Below, piece by piece: positions 16 to 60,919 of a stretch of DNA of 64,000 nt. This DNA comes from Treponema sp. (GTDB taxonomy: Bacteria; Spirochaetota; Spirochaetia; Treponematales; Treponemataceae), in NCBI GenBank assembly GCA_016288205.1, contig JAEEYO010000070.1, positions 62,001-126,000 of the forward strand. Direction: 5' to 3'. The notes beneath the pieces are model-generated. The model saw nothing but the letters and a program-made list of their open reading frames with translations, was not told the origin of the DNA and made no database searches. The first letter of the stretch is position 1. Every line of letters starts with the position of its first letter. The translations under genes were made by a program, and so were the position numbers.

Positions 16-678
16 TCAAGAAAATGACTGCCTGTGATTTTTGTAATTTTTCCTGAGCAGCTCCTCCATGCCGGAAAGCTTGACAAGCTCAGACATCTCA
101 ACTTTTTTCCCTGGCTGATATTCCACCACCGTCTCGCTTTCAGGAGGAATCTCAATGCGCCTTGTGTAGGCAAGAACCCTGGAATCCATTCCCTCTATGC
201 TGCATTTCAGGTTGATTATCACATACTTGCGCCCGGCAGGAATCAGCACATACTGCTCCCTGTCATCCGGCGAAATCTGTATGTCAAAGGAATCCGACGG
301 GGTCTCACCGCTCGCGGAATCAAAAAAGGCTATGTGAAGGAAAAATCCCTTGAAGTCGGGCCTTGAGGTAAGAGTCTCAAACTCCTGTATGCTGTAATCC
401 CAAAAAACAAAGGCCCATGCGGGATTTCTTAAAATGGCGTAAATCTGTGTCTCGTTATATGTCTTGGGCAGGAAATCGGGAACGTCTATCTCCGACTCCG
501 CCATCTGCTCTTCATCCGTCTCAGACTCAAGCTCTTGTGCCGCCTCAAGTAACTCCCCAATAACAAAGCGGCGGCTAAGGTTCTCGGGTATGTCAATGCC
601 ATAGTCAAAGGCAAGTGAAATCAAATCCGCCGTGGAAATAGATTCCAGATATTGCCGTGACAAAATTTTCTCTTCCAT
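16..678 (-). CDS. DUF4912 domain protein with N-terminal helical domain
   Basis: A 220-residue cytoplasmic protein with no signal peptide. Residues about 5-50 form a short helical segment (LESISTADLISLAFDYGI) that resembles a Rho-N or SAP-like nucleic-acid-binding fold. After an acidic linker, residues about 70-190 carry the DUF4912 core, recognised by YNETQIYAILRNP followed by WAFVFWDY. The family is common in spirochaetes and Firmicutes and its biochemical role is unknown. A nucleic-acid-binding role is only inferred from the N-terminal fold. No Shine-Dalgarno sequence precedes the ATG; a promoter with its -10 box 9 bases upstream suggests a very short or absent leader. It is separated from the next minus-strand gene by a heptamer repeat. 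Confidence 0.8.
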   Translation of the reverse strand: MEEKILSRQYLESISTADLISLAFDYGIDIPENLSRRFVIGELLEAAQELESETDEEQMAESEIDVPDFLPKTYNETQIYAILRNPAWAFVFWDYSIQEFETLTSRPDFKGFFLHIAFFDSASGETPSDSFDIQISPDDREQYVLIPAGRKYVIINLKCSIEGMDSRVLAYTRRIEIPPESETVVEYQPGKKVEMSELVKLSGMEELLRKNYKNHRQSFS

Positions 679-687
679 GATTCATCA

Positions 688-716
688 ATAATCGCTAAAA
701 TCGCCAATAATGTCAA
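688..716 (-). promoter_or_regulatory. Promoter of the DUF4912 gene, close to the ATG
   Basis: On the minus strand TTGACA (711-716) is followed by a 17-bp spacer and GATTAT (688-693), then 9 bases to the ATG at 678. The expected transcription start lies 2-3 bases before the ATG. The -35 box touches the C-rich end of the heptamer repeat. Confidence 0.55.
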
Positions 717-758
717 GGGGGAGAGGAAATTAGAAAGTGGAAAACGGAAAGTGGAAAG
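717..758 (-). repeat. Heptamer repeat array ending at a -35 box
   Basis: Read on the minus strand this is ACTTTCC, GTTTTCC, ACTTTCT, AATTTCC and TCTCCCCC running directly into TTGACA. It is one of six related arrays in the window (also 20856, 26816, 40058, 52852, 59656) and has the same orientation to the downstream promoter as those at 20856 and 40058. Confidence 0.75.
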
Positions 759-810
759 ATGACAGCTGATAAGGGTAATTACCAACTGTCAAATATCCAC
801 TAATAAGCTA

Positions 811-5958: not shown

Positions 5959-6888
5959 TCACTCCATGTCCTCAGTTTCAAAAGCTCTGACAATCTCCCT
6001 CGCATTTTTTCTCATCGCCTCAATATAGGCATCTTTTTTCAGCTCTCCAGAAATCACCGGATCAAGCTCAAAAATAGAAATGCCGGATGCAACAGCGATC
6101 GAAAGAGACTGCGGAATGGGGATTCCCGGTTCAGTAAAAATCGCAATTTTCGTTTTGTCCTCAAGGGCATCCAGAGTGATGGAAACAAGATCGGAAATCA
6201 AAGTGATATTGCGTCCGTCACCTTCCATCACACCGACCGAATCAAGAAGAAACTCCTCGGCAAACGGCTCAAAATAATTATGGAGCGTAATGATTCTGCT
6301 TCCTGCATAAGGATCAATCATCCCGTACATTTCTTTTGAAAGAGAAATCAGATCGGCCACATAATTAGAGGCATTTTCCAAGTACTTTTTTCTGTGAACC
6401 GGATCCAGTTCGGAAAGCCCGGCAGAAATTTCCGCCACCTCATGAATCGCTCCGTCTATGCTCGTCCAAATTGCAGGATTTTTTTTCGGCATGTCATACC
6501 CTTCGGAAGCGACAATCGAAGAGTTCCATTTCATTTCCACAGCCTGATCAAAAAATGGCTCAAGTCCACCGCCGTTCAAAATCAGAATATCACAGCTCTC
6601 CAGCAAAGTGGTTTTCTCCGCGTCCAGAACACAGCTGGAAAAATCAGTAACGGCAGAAGGAAAAAGAAGCACCATCTCCACATCATCAATTCCGTCGCAA
6701 ATATTCATCAAAGGAATGTAAAGCGGATAAAAGCTGACCCCAATTTTAAGCTTATTGCCTCCATTTTTTTCAGCGCCAGAAATATTTTCAGACGAACCGC
6801 CTTTTTTACATGACGCAGCGAAAAGCACGAGTGCGAGAATCATCAGGCTAAAAAAATTTTTAAAAGCATTCTTCATAAAAAACTTCAT
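5959..6888 (-). CDS. TroA/ZnuA-like solute-binding lipoprotein with missing metal ligands
   Basis: A 309-residue lipoprotein (signal peptide with lipobox LFAASC, Cys at 27) with the cluster 9 metal-binding fold: IGVSFYPLYIPL near residue 48, CDILILNGGGLEPFFDQAV near 105, LDP before the interdomain helix and ITLHNYFEPFAEEF near 200. In this family zinc or manganese is held by three His and one acidic residue. Here only the His in LHNYF is obvious; the GxDPHxYE-type site reads AVTDFSSC and the DPHVW-type site reads NPAIW. No permease or ATPase gene is adjacent. It may bind another ligand or have a sensing role. Start follows GGGAGAAGTGAA and overlaps the end of the DUF115 gene. Confidence 0.8.
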   Translation of the reverse strand: MKFFMKNAFKNFFSLMILALVLFAASCKKGGSSENISGAEKNGGNKLKIGVSFYPLYIPLMNICDGIDDVEMVLLFPSAVTDFSSCVLDAEKTTLLESCDILILNGGGLEPFFDQAVEMKWNSSIVASEGYDMPKKNPAIWTSIDGAIHEVAEISAGLSELDPVHRKKYLENASNYVADLISLSKEMYGMIDPYAGSRIITLHNYFEPFAEEFLLDSVGVMEGDGRNITLISDLVSITLDALEDKTKIAIFTEPGIPIPQSLSIAVASGISIFELDPVISGELKKDAYIEAMRKNAREIVRAFETEDME

Positions 6889-19746: not shown

Positions 19747-20817
19747 CTATTTTCTTTCTATTGTCATGCGGGAGATTGTCGTGTTTCTTCCAACATAAAG
19801 AGCGTCTCCCCTGACCTGAATGAACGCGCAATCTGCCTCGAATGAAAACTGTGCGGCAGGATGATCGGAAGGCTCTACAATGGTCACTGTATATGTGCCG
19901 TTCTTCTTGCTGAGGATACAGAGCATACCGTCGCTTTCCGATTCCTCAATCTGAATGATTTTGCCGTCCAATTCCACATGAGAACTCTTGAGCTTTTTCA
20001 AATCCACAATTCCGAGGCCGCCATTGTAATTGTAATAAACAGAATTTCCGGTCTTGTTGAATTTCACAAGCACCTGATTGTTTGTGTCCTCGGGAAGATA
20101 TTCATGGAAAATGATTTTACTGTGGATGCTGTCCGTCTTCTGCGCAATTACGAAACGCTGCTTGTTCTGTCCTGAAATACATGCCACGGTCTCGCCGTCC
20201 TCAGAAATTCCCACGCCAAGGACTACAGGAAAATCACTTCCACCCGGCGCAAATTTCTGATCCAGCTTTCCCTCCTTATTGAAAGAAACAACGTTTCCGT
20301 CAGCAAATCCGACCACGGTTCCACCCTCGCTTGAGTCAAACGCAATTATGGGTGCATAAGATTCATAGCTCCAAACCACGCTTCCGTCCCCAGCACATGA
20401 GGCAAAAGACGCTCCACCGGGAAGGAATGTGTAGATTCTGTCCTCATCAAAAAACGGAAATCCTGCCACCCTGATTGTACCGGCTTTTGATCCGTCAGAC
20501 GTGAAAAAATCAGCCTCCTCGCAGTCCGCACCGAAAGTCGCATAATACTTGTTTGAAATGGCGGCTTTGAACGCATAGGGAATGTGTGAGGCAATCTTTC
20601 CGTCCTCGGTAAAATAACCGATGCTCTGTCCGAGACGGAATGGAATCAGCTTTGAAACATCGCTTGAATCGGAACGCTGCAAATCATTTATGTTCACAGT
20701 CCAGTCGGGAACAAGATGCAGCTCCGTGCTCAAGGGTCTGAAAGCAAGCAGTATGTAAAGCAGGCAAAAAATCACCATGCCGATTATGACTCTATTTCTC
20801 TTTGTGTTTTTTTCCAT
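19747..20817 (-). CDS. Membrane-anchored beta-propeller-like protein
   Basis: A 356-residue protein with an N-terminal membrane anchor (residues about 9-27, VIIGMVIFCLLYILLAF) and a long periplasmic part with repeated strand pairs of PQQ/WD-like character (DGSVVWSYESYAPIIAFDS, EGGTVVGFADGNVVSFNKEGK, DGETVACISG). A six- or seven-blade propeller is likely. No enzymatic motif is seen; a scaffolding role at the envelope with the downstream LytM-like protein is inference. The only promoter found places its -10 box nine bases before the ATG, so the message may be nearly leaderless. Confidence 0.7.
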   Translation of the reverse strand: MEKNTKRNRVIIGMVIFCLLYILLAFRPLSTELHLVPDWTVNINDLQRSDSSDVSKLIPFRLGQSIGYFTEDGKIASHIPYAFKAAISNKYYATFGADCEEADFFTSDGSKAGTIRVAGFPFFDEDRIYTFLPGGASFASCAGDGSVVWSYESYAPIIAFDSSEGGTVVGFADGNVVSFNKEGKLDQKFAPGGSDFPVVLGVGISEDGETVACISGQNKQRFVIAQKTDSIHSKIIFHEYLPEDTNNQVLVKFNKTGNSVYYNYNGGLGIVDLKKLKSSHVELDGKIIQIEESESDGMLCILSKKNGTYTVTIVEPSDHPAAQFSFEADCAFIQVRGDALYVGRNTTISRMTIERK

Positions 20818-20826
20818 AATATATCT

Positions 20827-20855
20827 ATTTTAATGAAACGTTTGATTTTTGACAA
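20827..20855 (-). promoter_or_regulatory. Promoter of the beta-propeller gene, close to the ATG
   Basis: Minus strand TTGTCA (20850-20855), 17-bp spacer, TAAAAT (20827-20832), then nine bases to the ATG. The -35 box touches the C-rich end of the heptamer array. Confidence 0.6.
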
Positions 20856-20915
20856 GAGGGGGGAGAAAGTGGGGAGTGACGAGTTGAAAGTGGAAAGTGG
20901 AAAACGGAGAGTGGA
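20856..20915 (-). repeat. Heptamer repeat array ending at a -35 box
   Basis: Read on the minus strand: ACTCTCC, GTTTTCC, ACTTTCC, ACTTTCA, ACTCGTC, ACTCCCC, ACTTTCT, then CCCCCC and TC before TTGTCA. Seven heptamers are in perfect register. It lies between divergent genes. Confidence 0.8.
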
Positions 20916-26847: not shown

Positions 26848-28011
26848 TTAACAAGTTTCCAGGACTTTTTTCAGAATCTCAAGCCCCTTCACCATTTCCT
26901 TTTTGCTGATGTTCAGCGGAGGGACAAGCCTCAGGACGTTTGAGCCTGCGGTACTGAACAAGAGACCGGCGTTAAGGCAGGCTTTCTCTATGGCGACGGG
27001 ATCTTTGTCAACCTGAACTCCGGTCATCAAGCCCAAGCCCCTCACATCCTGCACGAAAGGAATGCTCCAGCCCTTGATTGTGCTCCTCATGAAATCTCCC
27101 TTCTGCGTCACCTTCGCCAAAAAGTCGGGACTCCTCAAAGTCTTAAGCACGACCTTTGCCGCCGCACACGCAAGAGGATTTCCTCCGAATGTGGACTGAT
27201 GGTCTCCCGCCTGGAACACACCGTTTGCCTTGCCCCGGAAAAGCATCGCGCCCATCGGAACTCCACCGGCAATTCCCTTGGCCAGAGTCACCACCTCAGG
27301 ATTGAACTGGAGCTGCTCACTCGCGAGCAAACTTCCCGTCCGTCCCATTCCGGTCTGAACCTCATCGGCAATCACAATGGCACCTGCCCTTCTTGCCGCA
27401 TCCGAAGCTGCCTGCACCCATTTAGGATCGAGCAGATTCACTCCGCCCTCGCCCTGCACGCACTCCACCATAAAAGCCGCCGTTGTACTGTCAAACGCGG
27501 AGTTGATTGCGGACCAGTCATTCGCTGCAATCGTCTTGAATCCCTGGGGATACGGGGCAAAACACTCCGGGTGGAATTTCTCCTGTCCGGTCGCCTTGAT
27601 TGTTGCTAGAGTCCGCCCGTGGAAGGAATTCTCCAGAGTAACGATGGTCTTCCGTCCCGCTCCTCCGTTGAGCTGACCGTACTTCCTTGCGAGCTTGATT
27701 GCGGCCTCGTTTGCCTCCGCACCGCTGTTTCCGAAATACACACCGTCAAATCCGGTCGCGTTCAGAAGCTCCTTCGCATAAGAGTCTCCGGTGTCGCTCA
27801 AAAAATAATTGCACACGTGAATCTGCTTGGCCGCCTGCTTGCTGATTGCCTTGACCAGCGGCTTGTAATTGTGACCGAGCGCGTTCACCGCAATTCCCGC
27901 CAAAAAATCAATGTATTTTTTTCCGTTCACGTCAGTCAGAGTAGAGCCCTTACCGCTTTTGAACGTAACGTCGAATGAACCGTAATTATTTACGACAATA
28001 CTGCTTCCCAT
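26848..28011 (-). CDS. argD: Acetylornithine aminotransferase
   Basis: A 387-residue class III PLP aminotransferase. [19 protein letters not shown] binds cofactor near residue 95, [15 protein letters not shown] near 215 and the Schiff-base Lys lies in [14 protein letters not shown] near 245; [11 protein letters not shown] follows. It converts N-acetylglutamate semialdehyde to N-acetylornithine in arginine synthesis, and may also act on succinyl-diaminopimelate. AAGGAA precedes the ATG. Third gene of argJ-argB-argD; argC is not in the window. Confidence 0.93.
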
Positions 28012-31448: not shown

Positions 31449-31511
31449 ATTTCAATTATACACCACGAAGCCCAGTTTAGCAAGAAAAGATTTTTCCTTC
31501 ACCGCAAGGTC

Positions 31512-31640
31512 GAAAAAGGCAAAACAAAACACCCGAAAAAGGCAAAACAAAACACCCGAAAAAGGCAAAACAAAATACCCGAAAAAGACAAAACAAAATA
31601 CCCGAAAAAGGCAAAACAAAATACCCGAAAAAGACAAAAC
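31512..31640. repeat. 23-bp tandem repeat, five full copies plus partials
   Basis: The 325-bp gap 31449-31773 is dominated by this array. The unit is GGCAAAACAAAAYACCCGAAAAA with G/A and C/T variation between copies (31518-31632 holds the five full units). There are no spacers, so it is not a CRISPR. It lies upstream of the minus-strand gene that starts at 31448. The core ACAAAATACC recurs in the 23-bp repeat at 56223. Confidence 0.9.
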
Positions 31641-39602: not shown

Positions 39603-40049
39603 ATGGAATACACAGAATCATCGGTGGTTTCGCTCATCTCGCACCTTCACACAATCACGGCGGATTTTACCAACGCACGTCTCGCAGGAAAGACAGGCAT
39701 GGTTTCCTCACACGGCTTCATTCTTTATCTTCTTTCCACCGGTGAAAAACTCACGAAAAAAGAAATCGCGGAAAAAATCAACAGGGACAAATCCACGGTC
39801 ACTGTCCTTATCCGAAAACTGATTGACGAAGGACTTGTAAAAGAGGAAGTAAACGCCGAGGATTCCCGCTCCAAACTGATTTCACTCACCGCAAAGGGGA
39901 AAAAATACAAATCCCTCACCTCCTCTATCTCAAGCGACTTGCTGAGCGTCTGCTACGAGGGATTTTCCGACGCAGAAAAAAAGACTCTCCTGAAGCTTCT
40001 CCAAAAAATGAATAAAAACGTCGAGACGAACTTAGGTATTAGGTATTAG
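39603..40049 (+). CDS. MarR family transcriptional regulator
   Basis: A 148-residue winged-helix regulator. The DNA-binding region is TKKEIAEKINRDKSTVTVLIRKLIDEGLV (residues about 50-80, recognition helix KSTVTVLIRKL), followed by the wing EEVNAEDSRSKLISLT with the conserved D-x-R. Flanking helices form the dimer interface. The ligand and target are unknown; the nucleoside transporter genes immediately downstream are the obvious candidates. AAGGAG precedes the ATG. The gene ends in GGTATTAGGTATTAG, and a heptamer array begins nine bases later. Confidence 0.9.
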   Translation: MEYTESSVVSLISHLHTITADFTNARLAGKTGMVSSHGFILYLLSTGEKLTKKEIAEKINRDKSTVTVLIRKLIDEGLVKEEVNAEDSRSKLISLTAKGKKYKSLTSSISSDLLSVCYEGFSDAEKKTLLKLLQKMNKNVETNLGIRY

Positions 40050-40057
40050 AAATGAGT

Positions 40058-40140
40058 ACTCTCCACTCTCCACTTTCAACTCTCCACTTTCAACTTTCCA
40101 CTTTCCACTTTCAACTTTCCACTTTCCACTCGCTCCCCCC
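40058..40140 (+). repeat. Heptamer repeat array, ten units, ending at a -35 box
   Basis: The best array of the family: ten consecutive seven-base units of ACTTTCC, ACTCTCC or ACTTTCA (40058-40127), then ACTCGCTCCCCCC, then TC and the -35 box TTGACT. The region contains no open frame of note. Confidence 0.9.
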
Positions 40141-40142
40141 TC

Positions 40143-40171
40143 TTGACTTTAGTTTGAAATAAAACTATATT
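40143..40171 (+). promoter_or_regulatory. Promoter of the nucleoside transporter operon
   Basis: TTGACT (40143-40148), 17-bp spacer, TATATT (40166-40171), 19 bases before ATG 40191. The short leader still contains AGAGG. Confidence 0.65.
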
Positions 40172-40190: not shown

Positions 40191-41216
40191 ATGAAAAGAC
40201 ATTTCAAATTAATTGCGGGTCTCATTCTCGCACAGGCACTTATTTTTTCTGGATGCACAAAATCATCATCAAAACAGAAGGGAACATCAATCGCGGTTTT
40301 TGTACCGGGCATTATGGCGGACTCCCCCACTTACGCAAATCTTGCAAAAGGGGTTCAGGCAGGAGTTGACGAATTCAATGCAGGCATTAGCGACGAAAAG
40401 AAAAAGGTTGAGCTTTACATAATGGAAGCAGGAACAAATCAGGCAGAATGGGCCACAAAGATGACATCCCTCGCGGCAGACGGCTCCTACGACGTTATCA
40501 TCTCATCCAATCCATCCATACCTGAACTTGCAAACGAGCTTTCAAAAAAATTCACGCAGCAGAGATTCGTCATCCTTGACGGAGCCTTGGAAGGAAACAA
40601 AAACATCGCTTGCGTGAGCTATGATCAGAAGGAGCAGACTTATCTTTCGGGCTATATCTCAGGCCTCATGTCAAAGACTCACCATGTCGCGGTCATTTCC
40701 GCCCAGGACTATCCGGTAATGAACAACATTCTCCATCCATATTATGCACGCGGTGCAGCCGATGCGGTCGCAGGAACCACATGCGAGTACAGGGTCGTGG
40801 GAAACTGGTACGACGCATCCAAGGGTGCAGAGCTTGCAGATTCCCTTTACTCAGCCGGTGTGGACGTAATCATGCCGATTTGCGGTGGAGCTTCGCAGGG
40901 TGTAATTTCTTCCGCCGTGGAGCATGGAATCTATCTTTCATACATTGACGAAAACTCCTTCCAAAAAGCACCCGGAACAGTAATCTCATCCTGCGCGACA
41001 AAACAGCAGAGAGCCGCAAAGGAAAGCACATTGGATTTCTTGAATGGAAAGACAAGCTGGGGAACCACAAAACTTGTAGGACTCAAAGAAGGCTACATTG
41101 AGTTCATCGAGGACGATCCGCTTTATGAGTCAACGGTTCCATCTGAAATCAGGGACAAGATGAAGTCTCTCGTCAAAGGACTTAGCGACGGTTCCATCTC
41201 TGTGCCGGCACTCTAA
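40191..41216 (+). CDS. BMP family nucleoside-binding lipoprotein
   Basis: A 341-residue lipoprotein (signal peptide with LIFSGC, Cys at 22) of the Med/PnrA/BMP family. Two-domain periplasmic-binding fold: IAVFVPGIMADSPTYANLAKG near residue 35, DGSYDVIISSNPS near 100, AVISAQDYPVMNN near 165 and VDVIMPICGGASQGVISSAVE near 220. Treponema PnrA (TmpC) binds purine nucleosides, so this is the likely ligand class. It heads an operon with an ATPase and two permeases. It contains the -GG- rich hinge of the family and is of usual length. Confidence 0.9.
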   Translation: MKRHFKLIAGLILAQALIFSGCTKSSSKQKGTSIAVFVPGIMADSPTYANLAKGVQAGVDEFNAGISDEKKKVELYIMEAGTNQAEWATKMTSLAADGSYDVIISSNPSIPELANELSKKFTQQRFVILDGALEGNKNIACVSYDQKEQTYLSGYISGLMSKTHHVAVISAQDYPVMNNILHPYYARGAADAVAGTTCEYRVVGNWYDASKGAELADSLYSAGVDVIMPICGGASQGVISSAVEHGIYLSYIDENSFQKAPGTVISSCATKQQRAAKESTLDFLNGKTSWGTTKLVGLKEGYIEFIEDDPLYESTVPSEIRDKMKSLVKGLSDGSISVPAL

Positions 41217-52346: not shown

Positions 52347-52817
52347 CTACCTGACCTGAGAAAAAAGCTCGGACATCTCGTCTCTCCAAGGGGCCCTTCC
52401 CTCGCGGCTTTCCCACTCGATGATTTTCCTGATGGTAAAGTGCCTTACGTCGCGGATGTTCGGATAGTTCAGCACACCGAAGCGTCCCTGCCCGATGTAG
52501 GCAATCTTGTCGCCCTCACCCAGAGTCTCGTTGTCCGAAACGATGTCCATGGCGCACTCAAAATGAATGGGCACACCGTCCCCGTGATCGGGAAGAGCCG
52601 TCGCCAAATCCATGATGACCTTGCCGCACCTTGGGCATACGGGCTGATTCTGTGACTTGAACGCACGGATTGCCTCATCCTCAGCGGCCATCTGCTCCAC
52701 CGAAACCGACGAGCGACCCCTGAACTGACCCTTTTTTGACCTGCCGCCGTTGTTATCCTCACGACGCCTGTTATTTCCACCGGCATTACGCCGCTTTGAA
52801 TTTCTGTCTCTTTTCAT
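52347..52817 (-). CDS. Zinc-finger hypothetical protein with basic N-terminus
   Basis: A 156-residue protein. Residues 1-35 are almost all Arg, Lys, Asn and Gly (RRNAGGNNRRREDNNGGR), as in RNA-binding tails; CPRCGKVI near residue 62 with HFECAMD near 85 forms a probable zinc finger; the C-terminus (GVLNYPNIRDVRHFTIRKII) is a conserved-looking beta-alpha segment. I do not recognise a named family. A nucleic-acid-binding role is inferred from the basic tail and finger. There is no Shine-Dalgarno sequence; a TATTAT box six bases before the ATG hints at a leaderless message, with a weak -35 (TAGATT) next to a heptamer array. Confidence 0.65.
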   Translation of the reverse strand: MKRDRNSKRRNAGGNNRRREDNNGGRSKKGQFRGRSSVSVEQMAAEDEAIRAFKSQNQPVCPRCGKVIMDLATALPDHGDGVPIHFECAMDIVSDNETLGEGDKIAYIGQGRFGVLNYPNIRDVRHFTIRKIIEWESREGRAPWRDEMSELFSQVR

Positions 52818-52851
52818 ACTAAAATAATACTACAATTGAATATAAAAATCT

Positions 52852-52912
52852 AGTGGAAAGCGGAAAACAGAAAGTTTTAGTTTTCATCTCTCCACTTTCA
52901 ACTTTCATCTTC
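52852..52912. repeat. Pair of inverted heptamer arrays overlapping a gene end
   Basis: AGTGGAAAGCGGAAAACAGAAAG (52852-52874) and CATCTCTCCACTTTCAACTTTC (52885-52906) are heptamer-family arrays in opposite orientation, with TTTTAGTTTT between. The second runs into the coding end of the HD gene, whose stop codon (52898-52900) lies within it. The pair can fold as a hairpin. Confidence 0.65.
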
Positions 52913-53542
52913 CTTGAGCCATCCCATCTCAATTCCGCGACGGATGTTCGCCTCGACCCACGGCCAGATTGCGGGCATCCACTTTTTGATGATGTCCATC
53001 CTCCGAAGCACCGAGGATTTTTTCACCGAATGTTCAACCCATGTGTGCCCCTGAGTCAGCGTGTTGTGGAAAAAAGGCTGGAGCACGTCCATGCAGGCTG
53101 CGAAACGGCTGTCGGGGGTGGAGCGGGAGTCAAATTCTTCCCACAGACCGCGGATTTCGTTTCCCTGGTCGGAAGGAAGCATGGCAAAAAGCTTGTCGGC
53201 GGATTTCCGTTCCCTCTCCTCCTTCGAGAGATTTCCCACGCTGTCGTAGGCGAAAGTGTCACCCGCGTAGATTTCAATCAAATCATGCACGGTCAGCATA
53301 CGGACGGCACGCCCCAAATCAGCGTTCTCCACGAAATGCTCCTGCAGGACCTGAGCCATAACGGCGATGTGCCAGGAATGTTCCGCGTCATTTTCACGCC
53401 GGGATTGGTCCAAGAGGACTGTCTGCCGCAAAATGTGAGTCATTTTGTCAATCTCCGCGACAAAGCGCATCTGTGAGTCAAAACGCTCTATGCCGCTCGG
53501 AAGATACGACCCGAAGGGATTTTCATTGATTTTGATTTCCAT
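52898..53542 (-). CDS. HD-domain hydrolase, YfbR-like
   Basis: A 214-residue HD phosphohydrolase resembling YfbR/YGK1 5'-deoxynucleotidases. Metal ligands are visible as RRENDAEHSWHIAV (His, near residue 50), MLTVHDLIEIYAGDT (HD, near 85) and the Asp in FAACMDVLQPFF. The usual substrate is dNMP. The C-terminal codons and stop lie inside a heptamer array. ATG 53542 is preferred over an in-frame codon at 53584 because a full promoter lies in between, with its -10 box six bases before this ATG; the mRNA is predicted to be leaderless. Confidence 0.85.
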   Translation of the reverse strand: MEIKINENPFGSYLPSGIERFDSQMRFVAEIDKMTHILRQTVLLDQSRRENDAEHSWHIAVMAQVLQEHFVENADLGRAVRMLTVHDLIEIYAGDTFAYDSVGNLSKEERERKSADKLFAMLPSDQGNEIRGLWEEFDSRSTPDSRFAACMDVLQPFFHNTLTQGHTWVEHSVKKSSVLRRMDIIKKWMPAIWPWVEANIRRGIEMGWLKEDES

Positions 53543-53548
53543 GATTAT

Positions 53549-53577
53549 ATTATAGAAGATTTTTGCTTGGTTGGCAA
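53549..53577 (-). promoter_or_regulatory. Promoter of the HD gene predicting a leaderless mRNA
   Basis: Minus strand TTGCCA (53572-53577), 17-bp spacer, TATAAT (53549-53554), then six bases to the ATG at 53542, which falls where transcription should begin. Confidence 0.7.
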
Positions 53578-53646
53578 GGAACAATCAACCTGCAGCCATT
53601 GCAAATTTGGAGGCGAAACAACAGCTGCAGGCAATTGCGGAAAAGG

Positions 53647-56215: not shown

Positions 56216-56222
56216 TCCACCG

Positions 56223-56278
56223 CAAATCACTGTAACAAAATACCACAAATCACTGTAACAAAATACCACAAATCACTT
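56223..56278. repeat. 23-bp tandem repeat, about 2.4 copies
   Basis: CAAATCACTGTAACAAAATACCA is repeated twice without spacer and followed by CAAATCACTT. It has the same period and shares the core ACAAAATACC with the array at 31512, and the 12-mer AAATCACTGTAA with the palindrome at 30399. Confidence 0.85.
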
Positions 56279-59579: not shown

Positions 59580-59655
59580 AGCCTCACCTCCATGTCTACA
59601 TTATCGTAACATAAATAGAAAAATATGTAAAGAAAATCAGCCCCGGGCTCTCAAC

Positions 59656-59682
59656 TTTCCGTTTTCCACTCTCCACTTTCCT
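59656..59682. repeat. Heptamer repeat array after a lipoprotein gene
   Basis: Plus strand CTCAACTTTCCGTTTTCCACTC and neighbours: units ACTTTCC, GTTTTCC, ACTCTCC, ACTTTCC. It begins immediately after the stop codon of the gene at 59684. Confidence 0.7.
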
Positions 59683-59683
59683 G

Positions 59684-60919
59684 TTAGTTGTTTGTGATTG
59701 ACTGAATCAGGCTGTCGGTTCGCCACCAGTTCACGTAGGCCTTGTCCGAGCGGATTGAAAGAACCGAGAGTATGCCCGAATTGCTCAGGTTGAACGTGTA
59801 GAAAAGGGTCTTCTGCCTGTCCATCTCAAGCTGGCGGTTCAAAATCCTCTGTCCGTTGGCCTGAATAATCTGCAGACCGAATCCAGCGTCATTGCTGATG
59901 ATGAAAAAGAACCATCCGTTCTCGCTCACGCCCAAAAAATCATAAGGAATCTTGTACTCCAGATTGGAAAAATCATCCACGGAGACCTCGGTATACGGAA
60001 TGATGTTCATCGGCGCGCCATAAGTTCCGGTCTCCACGTTGAGTCCGTAAAGCGTGGTGCGGTCATAATCCACCCCGGACTGCATCCTGCTCGCCTCATC
60101 CACATAAGGAATTGAGTAATCAAGCTTCACGTAAAGAATCCTGTCGTTGTAATCCGGCACGACGTTCTCAATCTCCACGTAGAACTCCTGATCCTCCTCA
60201 TAGGGCGACGGCACGTTCTTCTTTTCTATGGGGATTGTGAAAAGCATGTGTCCGGCCTCCGAGAACCAGTAAACTATGGGTCCCTCCGAGCTTACGCACA
60301 CCACCACAAGCTCGTTGTTGTTCGTGACATAAATATTCTTTACGAAGGGAAATGGTGTTCCGCCCGGCCCCTGCTGACCAAGATAGTCAACGAATTTTCC
60401 CTCGCCGTCAAAGCGCACGACAATATGCTCAAGATGCTCCTGCAGCTCGTCGTCGTATTCCTGCCGCTCAAGTGGAAGCTGGTCCACCGCATAGATGTAT
60501 TTCCGTCCGTCCACGGTAAGCTCCGTCACGCGGTTGAAGGGATATGACACTGCCTTTCTCGTCGCATTCATCGTCTCCCCCTCCTCGGTCGCAAAAGATG
60601 GCCGGGGATTCGTGTCCTCGTTGTAAAAGAGCGTCAGAAGGTCGCCGTAGGAGTTCATCTCCATGATTTTCTGGGACTCACCGTTGGATATATAAAAGAA
60701 TCCGTTGCGCATGGCAATCCTTGTGTCTATGTTGCCAATCTGATTGTAGTCGAAGATGTTCAGCTCATCCTCGAAATTTCCATACTCAAGGGAAAAGACC
60801 TCAACTTCCTCAAGGGACAGATTGTTTCTCTGCCTGCCGCAGGATGAAAAAAGCATGGCACATAAGGCCAGGGGCACAAAAGCCACGAATTCACCGATTT
60901 TTTTCATAATATTGACCAT
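59684..60919 (-). CDS. Lipoprotein with beta-propeller-like repeats
   Basis: A 411-residue lipoprotein: a hydrophobic signal peptide with lipobox AMLFSSC (Cys at 27), then a beta-rich body with repeated Asp/Gly turns (DGRKYIYAVDQLPLER, GEGKFVDYLGQQGPGG, NNELVVVCVSSEGPIVYWFSE) that suggests a six-bladed NHL-like or similar propeller. No enzymatic motif is seen. Start choice: ATG 60919 lies six bases after the -10 box, and ATG 60907 lies 18 bases after it; neither has a Shine-Dalgarno sequence, so a leaderless message starting at 60919 is favoured. It is divergent from secA. Confidence 0.75.
   Translation of the reverse strand: MVNIMKKIGEFVAFVPLALCAMLFSSCGRQRNNLSLEEVEVFSLEYGNFEDELNIFDYNQIGNIDTRIAMRNGFFYISNGESQKIMEMNSYGDLLTLFYNEDTNPRPSFATEEGETMNATRKAVSYPFNRVTELTVDGRKYIYAVDQLPLERQEYDDELQEHLEHIVVRFDGEGKFVDYLGQQGPGGTPFPFVKNIYVTNNNELVVVCVSSEGPIVYWFSEAGHMLFTIPIEKKNVPSPYEEDQEFYVEIENVVPDYNDRILYVKLDYSIPYVDEASRMQSGVDYDRTTLYGLNVETGTYGAPMNIIPYTEVSVDDFSNLEYKIPYDFLGVSENGWFFFIISNDAGFGLQIIQANGQRILNRQLEMDRQKTLFYTFNLSNSGILSVLSIRSDKAYVNWWRTDSLIQSITNN

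What the first reader, a model, noticed from the sequence alone, without database searches (positions are those of the whole stretch)
20856..20915. Heptamer arrays run through a C-rich end straight into a -35 box
At 717-758, 20856-20915 and 40058-40140 the pyrimidine strand always reads toward a promoter and ends CCCCC or CCCCCC, 0-2 bases, then TTGACA, TTGTCA or TTGACT. A fourth, weaker case is 52852 beside TAGATT. The same orientation and the same junction at three unrelated genes suggest that the array and the -35 box are one unit. Change in repeat number would move upstream sequence by 7 bp and so rotate any activator site.
Basis: partly seen in the sequence, partly recalled or inferred. 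Interest (0 to 1): 0.78.

Follow-up and report, generated by a model that had tools for sequence, protein, structure and literature searches.

The report
Heptamer arrays that stop at gene edges
Short 7-letter DNA repeats in this bacterium almost always begin exactly where a gene's working sequence ends, either just outside its promoter or at its stop codon, so the repeat-next-to-promoter pattern is one half of a more general rule that also appears in very distant bacteria.

Summary
At 717, 20856 and 40058 a heptamer array on the pyrimidine strand runs through CCCCC(C), 0-2 bases, into a good -35 box, each with a 17-bp spacer. Over 788 kb of this genome (59 arrays), the end facing the promoter (tail; 5' end of the purine strand) abuts a gene whichever way that gene points: at the -35 if the gene starts there, at or inside the stop codon if it ends there (34/35 within -36..+13 nt; head side median +41). 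The rule holds in a relative with other units (29/30) and, at stop codons, in loci from many phyla. It matches a rule published for Xanthomonas and Nostoc GGGNATC heptamers. The promoters occur in relatives without the array, so array and -35 are separable. Syntenic intergenic regions carry arrays in both species (6 of 8) with largely different units: position is kept, sequence turns over. First and last units are special. The C-run is enriched at promoter-facing tails (9/17 vs 11/154), but not in other phyla. Most likely these are intergenic repeats that advance tail-first to the last tolerated base; function is unproven. No RVT_1-type reverse transcriptase was found here.

The parts
720..768 (-). 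heptamer array (pyrimidine strand on minus), 7 units; tail faces the promoter of 16..678
   Evidence: (C5:62720-62768)
717..721 (-). CCCCC run between array and -35
688..716 (-). promoter TTGACA-17-GATTAT; conserved in relatives without the array
20866..20914 (-). heptamer array, 7 units; tail faces the promoter of 19747..20817
   Evidence: (C5:82866-82914)
20858..20863 (-). CCCCCC run; TC then -35
20827..20855 (-). promoter TTGTCA-17-TAAAAT; -10 and spacer conserved in relatives without the array
40063..40132 (+). heptamer array, 10 units, ending CCACTCG; tail faces the promoter of 40191..41216 (Bmp family lipoprotein)
40135..40140 (+). CCCCCC run; TC then -35
40143..40171 (+). promoter TTGACT-17-TATATT with MarR-operator-like AGTTTGAAATAAAACT (40151-40166); conserved in about ten relatives without array
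40032..40049 (+). second heptamer family TTAGGTA x2.6; its G-rich strand starts inside the 3' end of the MarR-family gene 39603..40049 and supplies its stop codon
52850..52877 (-). weak array; tail faces TAGATT-17-TATTAT upstream of 52347..52817; no C-run
52878..52912 (+). array head-to-head with the previous one; tail overlaps the 3' end of 52898..53584 (HD domain protein) and supplies its stop codon
26816..26836 (+). short array; tail 11 nt from the stop codon of 26848..28011
59652..59679 (+). array; tail 4 nt from the stop codon of 59684..60919

Best explanation
These are members of a class of intergenic heptamer cassettes with polarity. On the purine strand a cassette begins (CGAGTGG or similar, sometimes after a G-run) exactly at the outer edge of a neighbouring gene's indispensable sequence and runs outward into the intergenic space, often ending GAAAGCTG. 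The edge is the upstream border of the -35 box where a gene starts, and the last needed codon or stop codon where a gene ends. SHOWN: the edge rule, its independence of gene direction, its presence in a relative and, at stop codons, in many other phyla; existence of the promoters without arrays; replacement of the last native codons and stop by array sequence; conserved positions with changed units between two species. INFERRED: the array advances tail-first by adding units while deleting or replacing the flank, and purifying selection stops it at the first base that matters. The promoter therefore stays functional but is not part of the array. Species-wide change of unit type implies homogenisation among arrays or repeated re-seeding at the same sites. 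The C-run is inferred to be part of the advancing junction (absent from the G005 sequence compared at 40143 and at two gene ends), kept or favoured beside -35 boxes in this clade.
For: Edge rule: tail to stop median -8 (34/35 within -36..+13) vs head to stop median +41, p=3e-9; tail to start median 57.5 vs head 116, p=0.002; tail nearer in 48/59. G005: 29/30, tail to start 38-75 in 11/11. Loci from other phyla: 35/58 tails within -40..+15 of a stop vs 4/50 heads, p=1e-8. Other heptamer families (TTAGGTA, GGAGTGA): 5' end nearer 7/7. Homology to relatives resumes 1-17 nt (median 3) from stop-facing tails in 17/17, against median 68 at stop-facing heads. Native C-terminus and stop lie further out in G005. 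Promoters conserved without arrays. Syntenic intergenic regions: both 6, one only 1+1, neither 37, p=6e-6, with different unit spectra, chi2 p=4e-58. Punctuated ends: xAGCTTT first 19/61 vs 3/267 interior; NNNNNCG last 25/61 vs 5/267. Array-free intergenic DNA has no purine bias of that sense, 0.517 and 0.502.
Against: Short arrays (4-5 units) abut as precisely as long ones (no correlation with unit number), which fits birth at the edge as well as gradual advance. No step of the process was seen happening; there are no strain pairs. The tail-facing C-run is specific to promoters (8/24 vs 1/35 at stops), which simple advance does not predict. The gene caller was home-made and the species comparison rests mainly on one draft relative. 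The start-side rule was not significant in the other-phyla loci with the crude caller (p=0.16).
Confidence: 0.55

Rival explanations
1. One reading: array, C-run and -35 form one regulatory unit, and unit number tunes promoter output by moving upstream sites by 7 bp.
For: C-run of >=4 enriched upstream of the -35 at array promoters, 9/17 vs 11/154. In G005 two of the three sites also have a pyrimidine-rich, C-ending tract before the -35, of other sequence.
Against: 35 of 59 tails sit at stop codons, not promoters. Promoters are conserved without arrays. The C-run is absent from tails facing starts in other phyla (1/31). No conserved upstream site was found.
Confidence: 0.08
2. Transcription boundary element: the pyrimidine RNA is a C-rich, G-poor Rho loading site, or the array insulates neighbours, and is selected at gene edges.
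For: C-rich, G-poor strand; position between transcription units.
Against: The pyrimidine strand is sense to the upstream neighbour in 27 arrays and antisense in 32, so it does not follow the transcript to be ended. At stop-facing tails the transcript carries the purine strand. Unit sequence changes between species while position stays.
Confidence: 0.12
3. Mobile cassette: a discrete element with ends CACAGCTTT and CACTCG inserts whole at gene edges and is spread by horizontal transfer.
For: Distinct first and last units and head-to-tail joined cassettes CACTCG-CACAGCTTT at several loci. The same 24-mer occurs in Clostridia, Bacteroidota, Peregrinibacteria, Cyanobacteria, Planctomycetota and others. 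Patchy within the family, 48/274.
Against: No gene or target site was found with it. Flank is replaced rather than split. Unit type is species-specific at orthologous sites, not element-specific.
Confidence: 0.15
4. End healing: breaks between genes are extended with G-strand repeats by a telomerase-like enzyme (as DRT10 makes tandem-repeat cDNA) and rejoined.
For: The G-richer strand points 3' outward from genes, and head-to-head pairs occur. A bacterial telomerase-like reverse transcriptase making tandem-repeat DNA exists (PMC12632851).
Against: No RVT_1 match in G000 (99% complete), G198 (99%) or G005 (82%) although all carry arrays; one in array-bearing G084. Arrays are not enriched at synteny breakpoints, 7/13 vs 11/15.
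Confidence: 0.05

Closest known systems
GGGNATC heptamer arrays of Xanthomonas and Nostoc (Rehm et al. 2015, PMC4692102)
   Same: 7-bp unit, intergenic, G-richer strand begins next to the 5' neighbouring ORF whatever its direction, overlapping stop codons, conserved position with variable length between species, some inverted pairs, scattered over genes of all kinds.
   Different: Unit here is AAAGTGG-type with GG at most, so no G3 quadruplex motif. Commonest size is 5 units, not 4. Not depleted between divergent genes (14/59 vs 75/275 of intergenic regions). Unit vocabulary changes between related species; ends are punctuated.
TAACTGA direct repeats of marine Beggiatoaceae, Cyanobacteria and Bacteroidetes (MacGregor 2015, PMC4679880)
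   Same: Abundant intergenic 7-mers with patchy distribution across phyla.
   Different: Different unit, with single-base variants rarely repeated there; described mainly directly upstream of start codons; no tail rule reported in what was read.
STRR sequences of heterocystous cyanobacteria (own knowledge; Calothrix heptanucleotides cited in PMC4692102)
   Same: Dispersed heptamer arrays.
   Different: Other units; the gene-edge rule was not tested there.
Phase-variable simple repeats at promoters (contingency loci; own knowledge)
   Same: Tandem repeat beside a promoter.
   Different: Here the repeat lies outside the -35, at arbitrary genes, and more often at stop codons.
DRT10 telomerase-like reverse transcriptase (PMC12632851)
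   Same: Makes tandem-repeat DNA of short unit.
   Different: 9-nt repeats from a ncRNA in the best-studied system; no RVT_1 gene found in this genome.

Membership tests
Rehm-type intergenic heptamer arrays | unit of 7 bp in tandem, intergenic | tested here: met
Rehm-type intergenic heptamer arrays | 5' end of the G-richer strand next to an ORF irrespective of its direction | tested here: met
Rehm-type intergenic heptamer arrays | position conserved between related species, length and sequence variable | tested here: met
   6 of 8 array-bearing syntenic regions shared
Rehm-type intergenic heptamer arrays | runs of at least three G allowing quadruplexes, four units preferred | tested here: not met
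   common units have GG at most; 5 units commonest (19 of 59), 4 units in 5
Rehm-type intergenic heptamer arrays | under-represented between divergent ORFs | tested here: not met
   14/59 arrays against 75/275 intergenic regions >=80 bp
Promoter-linked phase-variable repeat | repeat within or between promoter elements so that unit number changes spacing | tested here: not met
   arrays lie outside the -35; spacer is 17 bp at all three sites
Promoter-linked phase-variable repeat | unit number varies between strains and alters expression | not testable with these tools
   no strain set or expression data
Rho utilisation site | C-rich strand is in the transcript that is to be terminated | tested here: not met
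   27 sense to the upstream neighbour, 32 antisense
Telomerase-like (DRT10) product | a reverse transcriptase encoded in the genome | tested here: not met
   no RVT_1 in G000, G198 or G005

The most novel reading that the evidence does not exclude
A class of punctuated heptamer cassettes spread over many bacterial phyla advances with fixed polarity into genes up to the last tolerated base, replacing stop codons and pressing against -35 boxes. It keeps its genomic positions between species while the unit sequence is replaced genome-wide in concert, which implies an unknown directional and homogenising DNA process.
Probability: 0.35. Interest if true: 0.85.

Novelty: new variant of a known kind. 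Interest (0 to 1): 0.6.

Why it matters
Dispersed bacterial heptamer arrays have been known for decades without an explanation. An edge rule that holds for several unit families and across phyla, with array-supplied stop codons, shared positions and turnover of units, narrows the question from 'what do they regulate' to 'what process writes them with this polarity'. That can be tested with close strains. It also warns that repeats next to promoters, and C-terminal tails translated from such repeats, may be by-products rather than regulatory design.

Tried and rejected
Arrays at synteny breakpoints: suggested by the first 20-kb comparison, not supported when counted (7/13 vs 11/15). Telomerase-like reverse transcriptase: no RVT_1 in the array-rich genomes G000, G198 and G005. 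Ambient purine skew at gene edges: absent. Gradual lengthening toward the edge: no correlation of unit number with tail distance. C-run as a general promoter feature of this species: only 11/154 array-free promoters. C-run as part of arrays in all bacteria: 1/31 start-facing tails in other phyla. Papers on Treponema promoter repeats gave nothing relevant.

Full report
What is in the sequence. All three main cases are as described. On the strand toward the gene the array reads C[CA][ACGT][CT]T[TC]T repeated, then a C-run (CCCCC at 717, CCCCCC at 20858 and 40135), 0 or 2 bases (TC), then TTGACA, TTGTCA or TTGACT. Each has a -10-like box after exactly 17 bp (GATTAT, TAAAAT, TATATT). The fourth case at 52850 has TAGATT-17-TATTAT and no C-run. 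Protein content (Bmp family lipoprotein, DUF4912) suggests a Treponema-like spirochaete; that is inference.

Genome-wide arrays. The window is G000:C5:62001-126000 of a 3.53-Mb draft. In 788 kb taken by stretches, 67 arrays score >=20 where an order-3 Markov null gives none. A slightly stricter cut and merging of neighbours leave 59 for analysis. Tandem 7-mers are dominated by one family (AAAGTGG 24 and AAAGTTG 6 of 82 perfect doublets). Intergenic self-similarity is confined to lag 7 and its multiple 14 (34 and 30 segments; other lags from 4 to 13 give 0-3).

The edge rule. With a simple hexamer-based gene caller, the pyrimidine 3' end (tail) abuts a gene whichever way the gene points. Facing a stop codon, 34 of 35 tails lie between -36 and +13, many at -8, -15 or -22, where the array itself supplies TGA (AAAGTTGA, AAAGATGA). 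Facing a start, the median is 57.5 nt, just outside the -35. The other end (head) is further away: median +41 from a stop, 116 from a start (p=3e-9 and p=0.002; tail nearer in 48/59). In the relative G005, whose arrays use other units, the result is 29/30, with start-facing tails at 38-75 nt in 11/11. In 80 loci from Clostridia, Bacteroidota, candidate phyla, Cyanobacteria, Planctomycetota and others, fetched by an exact 24-mer, stop-facing tails lie within -40..+15 in 35/58 and heads in 4/50 (p=1e-8); the start side there was not significant. Two further heptamer families in these genomes (TTAGGTA and GGAGTGA types) behave alike (7/7). One of them ends the MarR-family gene at 40049 in this window. 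Array-free intergenic DNA shows no such purine bias (0.517 and 0.502).

Array and promoter are separable. The promoter at 40143 is conserved, with its MarR-operator-like spacer AGTTTGAAATAAAACT, in about ten relatives that have neither array nor C-run. In G005 (79% identity) a ~25-bp repeat of other sequence abuts the same -35. At 717, TTGACATAAGTGCCGATTTTATAGATTAT stands without array in G224, G206 and G009. At 20856 the -10 and spacer are conserved in G113, G009 and G224. In G005 these two sites carry a pyrimidine-rich tract of another composition that also ends in a C-run before the -35.

The C-run. It is enriched at promoters with a tail-facing array over promoters without (9/17 vs 11/154, p=9e-6) and at start-facing over stop-facing tails (8/24 vs 1/35, p=0.002). 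At 40143 and at two stop-facing tails (C60 27051 and 38226) the C-run side is new relative to G005. In other phyla it is not seen at start-facing tails (1/31). Whether it affects transcription is untested.

Replacement of flank and turnover. DNA homology to relatives resumes 1-17 nt (median 3) from stop-facing tails in 17/17 cases, against median 68 at stop-facing heads. Several G005 orthologues carry a few further native codons before their own stop (for example VQGR* here against VQGENLPV* in G005, by reading). Among 45 syntenic intergenic regions of at least 40 bp, 6 hold arrays in both species, 1 in each alone and 37 in neither (p=6e-6), five of the six shared ones in the same orientation. 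Yet the unit spectra differ strongly: CCACTTT, CAACTTT, CCGTTTT and CATCTTT here; CAACTCT, CACCTTT, CAGTTCT and CACCTCT in G005 (chi2 p=4e-58). Arrays have special ends: xAGCTTT is first in 19/61 arrays but 3/267 interior units, and NNNNNCG is last in 25/61 but 5/267 interior units. Head-to-tail joined cassettes read CACTCG-CACAGCTTT. Part of the end effect could come from how the detector trims arrays, but not the specific sequences.

Known relatives. Rehm et al. 2015 (PMC4692102) reported for GGGNATC heptamers of Xanthomonas and Nostoc that repeats lie nearer to the next 5' ORF irrespective of its direction, including overlap with stop codons, at conserved positions, and left the function open. 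The present arrays obey the same rule without G3 tracts, so quadruplex formation of the usual three-tetrad type cannot be its general cause. TAACTGA repeats (PMC4679880) are another heptamer case. DRT10 (PMC12632851) shows that bacteria can have telomerase-like enzymes, but no RVT_1 protein was found in this genome.

Mechanism. The best-supported reading is that arrays are intergenic passengers that advance tail-first by addition of units with loss of flank, until selection for the coding sequence or the -35 box stops them. The edge, the replaced stop codons and the conserved promoters are shown; the advance is inferred. The lack of correlation between unit number and tail distance leaves birth at the edge open. 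The novelty over published work is the precision at the edge, the replaced stop codons, the C-run/-35 junction, the punctuated ends, the turnover of units at shared positions, and the same rule at stop codons for one unit type in many phyla.

Noticed in passing
window 40032-40049: TTAGGTA heptamer array of a second family supplies the stop codon of the MarR-family gene 39603..40049; the space up to the next promoter is filled by two arrays of different families, head to head.
   Followed up: partly
window 40151-40166: AGTTTGAAATAAAACT, a MarR-operator-like dyad between -35 and -10 of the Bmp operon, conserved in relatives; likely site of the MarR-family protein encoded just upstream.
   Followed up: partly
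window 31511-31640 and 56219-56277: 23-bp tandem repeats (5.7 and 2.6 copies) of other sequence in this window.
   Followed up: no
L096 1-340 (G005:C76): Different ~25-bp tandem repeat (CACTCGGCTATGATGCACGACTGCGA) and an imperfect palindromic GTCATTATCGGGCTTGACCCGATAATC repeat occupy the space upstream of the same -35.
   Followed up: partly
L130 around 1440-1540 (G005:C36): Heptamer array lies in frame inside a DNA methyltransferase-like gene, directly before GGFDVVIGNPPYVN.
   Followed up: no
L089 around 6272-6503 (G000:C20 26272-26503) and L141: A larger dispersed repeat (AACAAGGGGTTCTCCCACTTACGCC...GATTGGAGCCATGCCGC) carries an AAAGTGG array identical in G000 and G005, so this unit type predates their split.
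   Followed up: partly
L357, L361, L364: Clostridiales RUG189 has another heptamer family (CATTTCT) that repeatedly starts after GACTCGACAAC or GAGCTCGACAAC.
   Followed up: no
L315, L290: In some other phyla the tail abuts the neighbouring gene's terminator-like hairpin rather than its stop codon.
   Followed up: no
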